From Chitinophagaceae bacterium (lineage in GTDB: Bacteria > Bacteroidota > Bacteroidia > Chitinophagales > Chitinophagaceae): a stretch of DNA of 47,309 nt. The stretch spans positions 1-47,309 of the forward strand of contig CANGBH010000014.1 in assembly GCA_947451935.1 (NCBI GenBank). Direction: 5' to 3'. Below are positions 32,288 through 34,670 of this stretch, in pieces. A program made the position numbers and the translations under genes. Positions within the stretch are counted from its first letter, which is position 1. Each line of letters begins with the position of its first letter. The notes under the pieces were generated by a model. The model had not been told where the DNA came from. It made no database searches and saw only the letters and a program-made list of their open reading frames with translations.

Positions 32288-33229
32288 TTAGGCGAATCTG
32301 TAGCCCCTCAAAAATGATGAGATGTCCATTTTTTTCTTCCCTTCTAATTGCAGCTCAAGTATATTAATCCAACCATTTAATGCCCTAAATCGCAAATATG
32401 ATTTTCCGTCTGTGTCATAATTTCCAGGAGTAATTGTAGAGGTTGCAACTTCATATGTTGCTTTATATATTTTCAACATCTTACCTTCTAACGATGTAAA
32501 TGCAGCTGGATAAGGAGAGAGGCCGCGAATCAAATTATATACTTCGCTGGCAGAAGATTGCCAATTAATTCGGGCAGTATCAGTCGTCAATTTTGGCGCA
32601 ATGGGAATAATATCCTTGATATCCCTTTGGGCATCTTGTGGAAGTAGTTTTATACCATTTCCACAATACCCTTCTAACGTTTTATGCATCAAGTTTGCCC
32701 CAATCAACTTCATCTCATCATGCAATTCCCCGGCAGTTTCATCGTCTCTAATAGGAATTACCTCTTGCAATAATATATCACCTGTATCAATTTCTTGTTT
32801 CAATTTAAAGGTGGTAACGCCAGTTTGCTTTTCTCCATTAATGATTGCCCAATTGATGGGCGCCGCCCCTCGGTAGGAAGGTAATAGTGATCCATGAAGG
32901 TTCAACGTTCCCATTGGAGGCATATTCCATACAATTTCAGGAAGCATCCGAAATGCCACAACAACTTGTAGATCGGCCTTCAATCCACTAAGCTCTGTTA
33001 GAAATTTTGGGTCTTTTAATTTAACTGGCTGTAAAAGATGGAGATTATGTTCAATAGCATATTTCTTAACCGCACTTTGCGAAAGCTGCATCCCTCTTCC
33101 TGCAGGCTTATCCGGTGCAGTAACCACGCCAACGATACTACATCCTTCCTGGGCTAGCTTGTCTAATGTCGCCACCGCAAACTCTGGCGTTCCCATAAAA
33201 ACAATACGAAAATCTTTTAAAAATGGCAT
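32288..33229 (-). CDS. fmt: Methionyl-tRNA formyltransferase
   Basis: 313 residues. The N-terminal Rossmann domain has FMGTPEFAV and VVTAPDKPAGRGMQL, and the catalytic block NLHGSLLPSYRGAAPINWAI carries the Asn, His and later Asp (QEIDTGDIL). The C-terminal OB-like domain completes the protein. It formylates initiator Met-tRNA. The ATG follows a perfect -7 box by four bases, and the intergenic region upstream holds the heptad inverted repeat. def is not in the window. Confidence 0.96.
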   Translation of the reverse strand: MPFLKDFRIVFMGTPEFAVATLDKLAQEGCSIVGVVTAPDKPAGRGMQLSQSAVKKYAIEHNLHLLQPVKLKDPKFLTELSGLKADLQVVVAFRMLPEIVWNMPPMGTLNLHGSLLPSYRGAAPINWAIINGEKQTGVTTFKLKQEIDTGDILLQEVIPIRDDETAGELHDEMKLIGANLMHKTLEGYCGNGIKLLPQDAQRDIKDIIPIAPKLTTDTARINWQSSASEVYNLIRGLSPYPAAFTSLEGKMLKIYKATYEVATSTITPGNYDTDGKSYLRFRALNGWINILELQLEGKKKMDISSFLRGYRFA

Positions 33230-33233
33230 GATG

Positions 33234-33241
33234 CAAAGGTA
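33234..33241 (-). promoter_or_regulatory. -7 box of fmt, four bases before the ATG
   Basis: On the minus strand TACCTTTG, then CATC, then the fmt ATG. It is a full match to TAnnTTTG. It lies 12 bases from the edge of the heptad repeat. Confidence 0.6.
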
Positions 33242-33253
33242 GGGAAGAAATTT

Positions 33254-33344
33254 GTTAGGGGTTAGATGAGAGACGTTAGATGTTAGGAGTTAGACGTTAG
33301 GTGTTAGGAGTTAGATGAGAGATGAGAGATGAGAGATGAGAGTA
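33254..33344 (+). repeat. GTTAGNN heptad tandem repeat, left arm of an inverted repeat
   Basis: Thirteen consecutive seven-base units without a break: eight begin GTTAG (GTTAGGG, GTTAGAT, GTTAGAT, GTTAGGA, GTTAGAC, GTTAGGT, GTTAGGA, GTTAGAT) and five are GAGAGNN (one GAGAGAC, three GAGAGAT, one GAGAGTA). The same units occur in reverse complement at 33412-33451, so the two arms can fold together. Confidence 0.9.
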
Positions 33345-33411
33345 ATCAAATATTAATTATAAAATTTATATGAGTATATTTTTTAATACAAATCATTTAC
33401 TATTTCCTCAC
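33345..33411. other. AT-rich spacer between the heptad repeat arms
   Basis: 67 bases, very AT-rich, with no credible ORF or promoter. Folding of the flanking arms would place it in the loop. Confidence 0.5.
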
Positions 33412-33451
33412 TACTCTCATCTAACACCTAACGTCTAACTCCTAACGTCTC
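33412..33451 (-). repeat. Heptad repeat, right arm (reverse complement of the left arm)
   Basis: Read on the minus strand it is GAGAC, GTTAGGA, GTTAGAC, GTTAGGT, GTTAGAT, GAGAGTA, the left-arm order with several units missing. Its outer end overlaps the stop codon of the DUF1343 gene (TGA of TGAGACG). Confidence 0.88.
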
Positions 33452-34670
33452 AATAAATCAAATACCTCTTCCTAATCACCTTAAACTCACTCAACATTGG
33501 CTCCCAAGATTTTCGGATGGACTCTTCTGATTCTCCAGCTATAATCTGCAACATCAGTTCTTCATTGCCAGCAAGTTTATTAAAAAAAGCATCTTTGATT
33601 TCTCCAGATTTTGGAAGAATAAAAAAGTGTTCCTTGTCTGCGTAAAATTTATAGGCATTGATTAAATACGAAAGTTGAATCCTAGTACCCATTTTCTTCT
33701 TCACTTCTTCAGCAGATCCAGTTATCCTCCAGCCATAACATTGTTGATCTGCAAACTTCGGAAACAGAGCGCCAGGCATAGCTTTGGGCATAAAGCTATA
33801 TAAATCCTTGGGTAAAGATGGATGTCCAAATACCTGAAACGGCGTAGCTGTTCCACGCCCCTCACTTAATACAGTGCCCTCAAAAAAACAGATCGATGGA
33901 TAACAATATATCGAAGACATCGTGGGCAAATTGGGCGAAGGCTTCACCGGCAAACTATAAACAGTTTGATGTGTATAGTTTTTACACGGAATGACCTTGA
34001 GTAAATTCTTACCTTTTTTTAAAAGACTATCATAAACTTGTTGCGTTGAAGATGAAATCCATTTTTCTCCTATCAACATGCGGGCATATTCACCAATAGT
34101 CATCCCATATACAACTGGTACAGGCTGCATGCCAACAAACGATTTATAGGATGGGTCTAATACTGGACCATCTACATAATGTCCGTTTGGATTTGGCCTA
34201 TCTAAAATCAACAATTGTTTTTTTGCGCTAATTACTCCCTCCATTAACTCTTCAAGCGATGAAATAAACGTATAAAATCGAACCCCTACATCTTGAATAT
34301 CAAACAAGACAATATCAACCCCTTCAAGATCTTGAGACGACGGCCTTCGCTTACTGCCATATAACGAAATAACAGGTATCCCTGTCTTTTCATCAACATA
34401 ATTACCTACTTTCTCGCCTGCATCTGCAGTGCCTCTAAACCCATGCTCTGGGCCAAAAATGACTTTAATGTTGATGCCTTTACTCAACAGAGTATCCACC
34501 AGGTGAGTTTCTCCTAACGTTGACGTCTGATTTGCAAAAACAGCTACTTGCTTGCCTTTGAGCAAGGGTAAATACTGAGGTAGGCTATTTGCCCCTGGCA
34601 AAACATGCTGAGCCTTTGCAAAAAAAATGCCGAATACCAAAACCAATGAAAAAACGAATGCTTTTGACAT
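33450..34670 (-). CDS. DUF1343 protein, NamZ-type exo-beta-N-acetylmuramidase
   Basis: 406 residues. The signal peptide is AFVFSLVLVFGIFFAKAQ. The DUF1343 core has VFANQTSTLG, FGPEHGFRGTADAGEKVGNY, VDIVLFDIQDVGVRFYTFISSL, LILDRPNPNG and SEGRGTATPFQVFG. In Bacillus subtilis the DUF1343 protein NamZ releases N-acetylmuramic acid from peptidoglycan ends, and this homologue probably acts in the periplasm on turnover fragments. The stop codon overlaps the heptad repeat, but the length is normal for the family, so truncation is not evident. Confidence 0.9.
   Translation of the reverse strand: MSKAFVFSLVLVFGIFFAKAQHVLPGANSLPQYLPLLKGKQVAVFANQTSTLGETHLVDTLLSKGINIKVIFGPEHGFRGTADAGEKVGNYVDEKTGIPVISLYGSKRRPSSQDLEGVDIVLFDIQDVGVRFYTFISSLEELMEGVISAKKQLLILDRPNPNGHYVDGPVLDPSYKSFVGMQPVPVVYGMTIGEYARMLIGEKWISSSTQQVYDSLLKKGKNLLKVIPCKNYTHQTVYSLPVKPSPNLPTMSSIYCYPSICFFEGTVLSEGRGTATPFQVFGHPSLPKDLYSFMPKAMPGALFPKFADQQCYGWRITGSAEEVKKKMGTRIQLSYLINAYKFYADKEHFFILPKSGEIKDAFFNKLAGNEELMLQIIAGESEESIRKSWEPMLSEFKVIRKRYLIY

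What the first reader, a model, noticed from the sequence alone, without database searches (positions are those of the whole stretch)
33254..33451. Seven-base-period inverted repeat (GTTAGNN) upstream of fmt
Thirteen unbroken heptads at 33254-33344 and their reverse-complement units at 33412-33451 flank a 67-base AT-rich spacer. Each unit varies only in its last two bases or switches to GAGAGNN. A strict 7-base period, ordered units shared by both arms and different copy numbers per arm suggest a replicating or slippage-prone element (MITE- or REP-like) rather than random low complexity. RNA through it would fold into a long hairpin directly before the fmt promoter. The GG-containing units also resemble telomere-type repeats.
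Basis: seen in the sequence. Interest (0 to 1): 0.6.

Follow-up and report, generated by a model that had tools for sequence, protein, structure and literature searches.

The report
Seven-base repeat tracts capping gene edges
Next to the fmt gene sits a mirror-image pair of seven-base repeat tracts; some related bacteria carry such tracts in the same gap but spelled with a different seven-letter word, which points to a general process that fills gaps between genes rather than to a switch for this one gene.

Summary
In detail: 13 heptads (33254-33344) and six inverted heptads (33405-33446, plus a partial unit reaching the stop codon of the namZ-like gene) flank an AT-rich core. They are not unique: 24 overlapping matches at 11 sites in this draft genome, none for the reversed pattern. 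In relatives the same namZ-fmt gap holds heptad arrays in 8 of 23 readable cases, spelled GTTAGNN, GTTGGGA, GGCACAN, GGGACNA or TCTGANT-like; array gaps are 87-382 bp, array-free ones 11-73 bp. Period and place persist; the word changes.

Placement follows a rule: the G-rich strand starts at a gene edge and runs into the gap, so close opposite-strand neighbours are ordered G-rich then C-rich 46 to 1 in the genus (39 to 1 by distinct site) and 32 to 3 in named genomes of several phyla. Rehm et al. 2015 reported this placement for GGGAATC repeats and linked it to G-quadruplexes; here it also holds where no quadruplex motif is found.

Best reading: slippage-prone heptad tracts of a known kind, with unexplained polarity. 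MITE/REP, reverse-transcriptase and fmt-hairpin readings found little support.

The parts
33254..33344 (+). Arm 1: 13 heptads GTTAGNN/GAGAGNN, G-rich strand on +, beginning 24 bases upstream of the fmt ATG
33345..33404 (.). AT-rich core (60 bases); not alignable to the cores of G183, G177, G170, which resemble each other
33405..33446 (-). Arm 2: six heptads read on -, followed outward by a partial unit to 33451
33450..34670 (-). Upstream gene, NamZ-like (DUF1343, exo-beta-N-acetylmuramidase domains); its TGA stop 33450-33452 overlaps the outer end of arm 2
32288..33229 (-). Downstream gene fmt (Formyl_trans_N and Formyl_trans_C)
33234..33241 (-). TACCTTTG box between array and fmt ATG, possible Bacteroidota-type -7 element (motif recalled)
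   Evidence: sequence; a TAnnTTTG-like box is visible at this place in several relatives (by eye)

Best explanation
The feature is a pair of intergenic heptad tracts of the kind known as heptameric repeats in Xanthomonas, Nostoc and Beggiatoaceae. Such tracts occupy the unconstrained DNA between a stop codon and the next constrained element (a terminator or a promoter). SHOWN here: period 7; G-rich strand beginning at a gene edge and running into the gap; cores that can be conserved while arms change; length differences enriched for whole heptads; change of the word at one orthologous gap; word sets shared by unlinked sites within a clade. INFERRED: tracts are born and enlarged by strand slippage or unequal exchange, units mutate and are re-amplified so that the word drifts, and growth stops at gene edges because going further harms the gene. 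The polarity is a real constraint on how they form or are tolerated, and its cause is unknown. Most tracts, this one included, probably have no specific regulatory job for the neighbouring gene.
For: 24 matches at 11 sites, reversed control 0. Word-free scan: lag 7 stands above other lags that are not its multiples in G139 (29 against at most 10 at lag 8) and G170 (42 against at most 3); two rough resamplings per genome gave 0. Same gap, five vocabularies, 8 of 23 occupied, gap lengths 87-382 against 11-73. Orthologous arms differ by 7, 14 or 21 in simple cases. Conserved cores with changed arms. Non-orthologous arrays are more alike within the G000/G170/G183/G177 clade (means 0.24-0.35) and within G139 (0.27) than between them (0.20-0.21).
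Against: Slippage alone does not explain the strand polarity (46 to 1; 36 of 43 unpaired arrays), shared vocabularies between unlinked sites, matched arms in G139, the seemingly wholesale change of arms and core in this genome against G183 with 96/91% identical flanks, or the AACAGCC motif at inner ends. 82 of the 121 gaps of 5 nt or more are not multiples of 7. In the unselected 447 kb of this genome lag 7 (5 arrays, two of them the window's arms) does not exceed lags 12, 18 or 21.
Confidence: 0.5

Rival explanations
1. Directional transcription insulators: any transcript about to enter a gene from the gap, sense or antisense, first passes a C-rich, G-poor stretch, the composition of a Rho loading site (C-over-G bubble, recalled), so read-through is cut off at gene edges.
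For: The polarity rule is the one required. Inverted pairs are enriched between convergent genes (13 of 35 placed pairs against 89 of 586 gaps of this genome, p 0.002) and fewer between divergent ones (2 of 35 against 101 of 586, p 0.10).
Against: In gaps between same-direction genes it predicts mostly tracts that are C-rich on the sense strand; unpaired arrays are 14 that way and 10 the other, all arrays in named loci 45 and 54. In Xanthomonas no regulatory role was found (PMC4692102). No expression data here.
Confidence: 0.15
2. Mobile element of MITE or REP type, perhaps moved by a Y1 (RAYT-type) transposase.
For: Inverted repeats in intergenic sites. Y1_Tnp is present in 10 of 10 array-rich genus genomes against 13 of 31 others (p 0.002) and in 24 of 26 against 83 of 121 in the family sample (p 0.014). 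One identical 29-bp core at two G139 sites. AACAGCC at the inner end of 11 of 159 arrays, 0.29 expected.
Against: Cores otherwise not shared within a genome; Y1 genes not flanked by arrays (4 of 21 neighbourhoods); G042 (98% complete) and G122 (85%) have arrays and no Y1 match; the association is not corrected for kinship or genome size.
Confidence: 0.09
3. A selected RNA hairpin, terminator or attenuator formed by the two arms.
For: Strong fold in the window; arms match in G139 (12 pairs, 0 of 5000 permutations as good).
Against: No arm matching beyond permutation in G000 (p 0.40) or G170 (p 0.13); 13 of 46 pairs poorly matched; many arrays have no partner within 200 bp; two sites have a separate terminator-like hairpin between the arms; 15 of 23 orthologous gaps lack arrays.
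Confidence: 0.1
4. G-quadruplex function, as proposed for the Xanthomonas and Nostoc repeats.
For: GTTGGGA and GTTAGGG words carry G runs; 16 of 159 arrays have four G3 runs.
Against: 99 of 159 arrays lack even a G2 motif, and 37 of the 46 G-then-C pairs have no arm with four G3 runs.
Confidence: 0.05
5. End extension at breaks: both 3' ends of a break in the gap receive G-rich heptads before rejoining, as at fused telomeres.
For: Predicts the polarity regardless of transcription direction, matched arms at young sites and one-step replacement.
Against: Conserved cores, terminators among them, between the arms do not fit a break in the middle. The reverse-transcriptase form is not supported: PF00078 is missing in 9 of 10 array-rich genus genomes. 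Other polymerases were not tested.
Confidence: 0.06

Closest known systems
GGGAATC / GGGGA(C/T)T heptameric repeats of Xanthomonas and Nostoc (Rehm et al. 2015, PMC4692102; abstract, sections 10, 15 and 16 and passages seen)
   Different: Words here are many and mostly without G3 runs; the word changes at an orthologous gap; AT-rich Bacteroidota-like genomes.
TAACTGA heptamer repeats of Beggiatoaceae, Cyanobacteria and five Bacteroidetes (MacGregor 2015, PMC4679880; abstract and section 10 read)
   Same: Intergenic heptamer arrays near ORFs, mixed with other heptamers in some Bacteroidetes, absent from the same gap in close relatives.
   Different: One fixed word, mostly direct repeats upstream of start codons in Beggiatoaceae; no inverted-pair rule described in what I read.
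REP/REPIN-RAYT elements and MITEs (titles and abstracts in listings only, PMC3116915, PMC2817692, PMC4596501)
   Same: Intergenic inverted repeats; Y1 genes present in the array-rich genus genomes.
   Different: No constant element found, cores site-specific, Y1 genes not flanked by arrays.
Telomere-like repeat synthesis by DRT10 reverse transcriptase (PMC12632851, abstract start and passages)
   Same: Tandem repeat DNA in bacteria.
   Different: 9-nt repeats made as cDNA; no PF00078 match in this genome.

Membership tests
Intergenic heptameric repeats (Rehm 2015 type) | tandem units of 7 bases | tested here: met
[quoted passage not shown] convergent pairs | tested here: met
Intergenic heptameric repeats (Rehm 2015 type) | G runs able to form quadruplexes | tested here: not met
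   16 of 159 arrays have four G3 runs, 44 more only four G2 runs
MITE | same core and ends at several places in one genome | tested here: not met
   one sharing among 46 pairs
MITE | target-site duplication | not tested
   no clean empty site was compared base by base
REP/RAYT | repeats flank a RAYT gene | tested here: not met
   4 of 21 neighbourhoods hold any array
Telomere-type repeats made by a reverse transcriptase | reverse transcriptase in the genome | tested here: not met
   PF00078 only: 0 in this genome, 5 of 41 in the genus
Intrinsic terminator | hairpin followed by a U run | tested here: not met
   The window core has no such hairpin by the script's rule; the arm 1 side of the hairpin is followed by AAATTTCTTCCC on the transcript strand. 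The rule missed one A/T-flanked hairpin seen by eye elsewhere, so it is not sensitive.

The most novel reading that the evidence does not exclude
Bacteria of several phyla share a word-independent process, or a shared function, that caps gene edges with period-7 tracts whose G-rich strand points into the gap. The spelling is free to change, even wholesale at one orthologous gap between close relatives, while period, place and polarity are kept. The unit of conservation would be geometry, not sequence, and the quadruplex explanation offered for the Xanthomonas case would be a special case.
Probability: 0.3. Interest if true: 0.75.

Novelty: new variant of a known kind. Interest (0 to 1): 0.48.

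Why it matters
The reports of heptameric intergenic repeats that I could read treat one word at a time, with explanations tied to that word. One orthologous gap holding five heptad vocabularies, with the same placement in words with and without G runs, separates what is conserved (period, place, polarity) from what is not (sequence). That makes the old question of why seven bases, and why this orientation, testable with sister genomes and long reads.

Tried and rejected
Chance or low complexity: rejected. Assembly artefact: the same gap carries arrays in separately assembled relatives. Mobile MITE/REP and RAYT link: association found, architecture not met. Reverse-transcriptase (telomere-like) link: no PF00078 in 9 of 10 array-rich genus genomes. 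Quadruplex: not general. Conserved hairpin for fmt: not general. Inherited base composition: array-free gaps show no G over C at gene 3' ends in this genome (G 0.155, C 0.157) and a mild excess at 5' ends (0.161 v 0.115), against G 0.34 and C 0.10 in its arrays. Rho insulation: kept as a rival.

Limits. Pairs and arrays in G000, G170, G177 and G183 include orthologous sites; grouped by orthology the 46 pairs are 39 distinct sites. Of the G000 stretches, those were unselected; some (C8, C12, C18, C31, C33, C34), all of G183 and G177, half of G170 and a few of G139 were chosen because they held known matches, so densities are biased upward. In the unselected G000 stretches only 3 arrays were found by the rule. 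Arrays with G equal to C, fewer than six G+C, or strong period 1-3 were dropped before counting; the G-rich strand was chosen as the strand with more G than C, so low C is partly by construction (C 7-14%), while the polarity is not. The resampling control applied one filter to the unshuffled letters and is rough. Genes were called by a simple ORF script. Family tallies for Y1_Tnp were made by hand (matches to GTTAGNN, its reversal and GGCANNA summed, 5 or more); reversed GGCANNA matches (28 in G021, which has Y1) were not counted. One search ended in an error after its main counts; the core comparison was redone. Papers PMC4666352 and PMC4060949 were seen as passages only and gave nothing specific. 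Taxonomy of the genome was not established; Bacteroidota is inferred. Viral, plasmid and E. coli collections were not searched, no structure was predicted.

Full report
OBSERVATION. The window holds 13 heptads at 33254-33344 and six inverted heptads at 33405-33446 with a partial unit to 33451. The core is 60 bases. The array lies between two genes read in the same direction: a NamZ-like (DUF1343) gene whose TGA stop (33450-33452) overlaps the end of arm 2, and fmt, whose ATG (33229-33227) and TACCTTTG box (33241-33234) lie beyond arm 1. The region folds as RNA at -67.3 kcal/mol, z -9.1. The run of three units shared by the arms is reached by 201 of 5000 unit shuffles.

NOT UNIQUE. Three units of GTTAGNN occur at 24 overlapping places, 11 sites, in this 2.56 Mb draft genome; the reversed pattern gives 0. 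Of 41 genomes searched in the genus, 11 match, with counts up to 155; of 147 in the family, 26 match. There the reversed 'control' pattern is itself common in some genomes (49 in G071), so other genomes use other words. A second word, GGCANNA, matches 12 of 41 and 27 of 147. A word-free scan by period (lags 4-14) finds lag 7 above the lags that are not its multiples in G139 (29 against at most 10, at lag 8) and G170 (42 against at most 3), and almost nothing in G053 (1 in 322 kb). In the unselected 447 kb of this genome the signal is thin: 5 arrays at a 0.65 threshold, two being the window's arms, the same number as at lags 12, 18 and 21.

SAME GAP, DIFFERENT WORD. The namZ-fmt gap could be read with both genes in order in 23 of 31 loci. 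Eight carry heptad arrays (gaps 87-382 bp) and 15 do not (11-73 bp); the ranges do not overlap. The words are GTTAGNN here, GTTGGGA in G183 and G177 (and in G170, whose contig ends inside the array and which is not among the 23), GGCACAN in G139, GGGACNA in G165, G151 and G159 (one arm each), and a TCTGANT-like word in G175. G139 has the same inverted plan around an AT-rich core. The cores of G183, G177 and G170 resemble each other (0 of 500 shuffles as good); the core of this genome does not resemble them (109 to 255 of 500) although its flanks are 96/91% identical to those of G183. So in this lineage the whole gap content seems to have been replaced.

ANATOMY ACROSS SITES. In 159 arrays from six genus genomes, neighbours within 200 bp on opposite strands are ordered G-rich then C-rich 46 times (39 distinct sites) and the reverse once; six close neighbours share a strand. 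Arrays that follow a same-strand gene begin between -25 and +12 of its stop codon in 60 of 72 cases; array borders are fuzzy by about ten bases. In unpaired arrays the 5' end of the G-rich strand is nearer a gene than the 3' end in 36 of 43. In 80 loci from named genomes the order is 32 to 3, namely 16 to 1 in Cyanobacteria, 11 to 2 in Bacteroidota and relatives, 5 to 0 elsewhere, and the edge rule holds in 103 of 143 arrays, with 17 inside ORFs and 37 at locus ends set aside. Array-free gaps of this genome have no G over C at 3' edges and a mild excess at 5' edges. Pairs are enriched between convergent genes (13 convergent, 20 same-direction, 2 divergent of 35; 11 more had a gene missing at a locus end).

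CORES AND ARMS. Cores are conserved between orthologous sites while arms differ. At two sites the core holds a terminator-like hairpin: at one (G000 L187, G170 L152, G183 L214) an inverted repeat between A and T runs seen by eye, which the script's rule did not flag; at the other (G170 L169, G177 L228) one that the script flagged. Length differences between orthologues are multiples of seven in 39 of 121 alignment gaps of 5 nt or more, repeated comparisons included; simple cases differ by 7, 14 or 21, messy ones do not. Arms match their own partners beyond permutation in G139 (0 of 5000 as good) and weakly in G183 (p 0.04), not in G000 (p 0.40) or G170 (p 0.13). Thirteen of 46 pairs have poorly matched arms.

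MECHANISM. Slippage or unequal exchange acting on period-7 tracts, limited by gene edges, explains length changes, the fit to the gap and word drift. It does not explain polarity, shared word sets, or the inner-end motif AACAGCC (sense at the inner end of 11 of 159 arrays, antisense at 3, none at outer ends, 0.29 expected). A Rho-insulator function would explain polarity but predicts a bias in same-direction gaps that is not seen. Reverse transcription is not supported: PF00078 is in 5 of 41 genus genomes and missing in 9 of the 10 array-rich ones, this genome included. Y1 transposases are more common in array-rich genomes (10 of 10 against 13 of 31 in the genus; 24 of 26 against 83 of 121 in the family, tallied by hand; tests), but arrays do not flank them and G042 has arrays without one. 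Quadruplexes are not general: 99 of 159 arrays lack even a G2 motif.

KNOWN OR NEW. Rehm et al. 2015 (PMC4692102; abstract, sections 10, 15, 16 and passages seen) described GGGAATC repeats in Xanthomonas and similar ones in Nostoc with the same placement and convergent pairs, saw quadruplex formation in vitro and found no regulatory role. MacGregor 2015 (PMC4679880; abstract and section 10) described TAACTGA repeats, including Bacteroidetes with mixed heptamers and relatives without them. Eight searches of the held library listed nothing that I recognised as an account of word replacement at an orthologous gap or of this polarity in words without G runs; I judged most entries by title and abstract start, and subscription journals are mostly missing there. 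I file the finding as a new variant of a known kind.

Noticed in passing
inner ends of arrays, e.g. L133, L134, L135, L137 (G139), L189 and L063 (G000): The 7-mer AACAGCC sits at the inner (3') end of the G-rich strand in 11 of 159 arrays (0.29 expected, none at outer ends), next to different heptad words.
   Followed up: partly
L135:2220-2330 and L137 from 15486 (G139): Two separate array sites share an identical 29-bp core, the only within-genome core sharing among 46 pairs.
   Followed up: no
L133:4141-4360, L135:639-830 (G139): Arrays of period 8 (GGCAAAGA / GGCAAGGA words) exist beside the heptads, also as inverted pairs by eye; 10 at lag 8 in G139.
   Followed up: no
G153 (genus member): The strongest GGCANNA carrier (304 matches) also has the most Y1_Tnp matches in the genus (7).
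   Followed up: partly
L065:4363-4698 (G000:C4): Single Y1 transposase-like gene with no heptad array found in the surrounding 20 kb.
   Followed up: partly
L187 5011-5337 (G000) and orthologues L152, L214: Heptad arms on both sides of a conserved inverted repeat between A and T runs, like a two-way terminator, in a convergent gap.
   Followed up: partly
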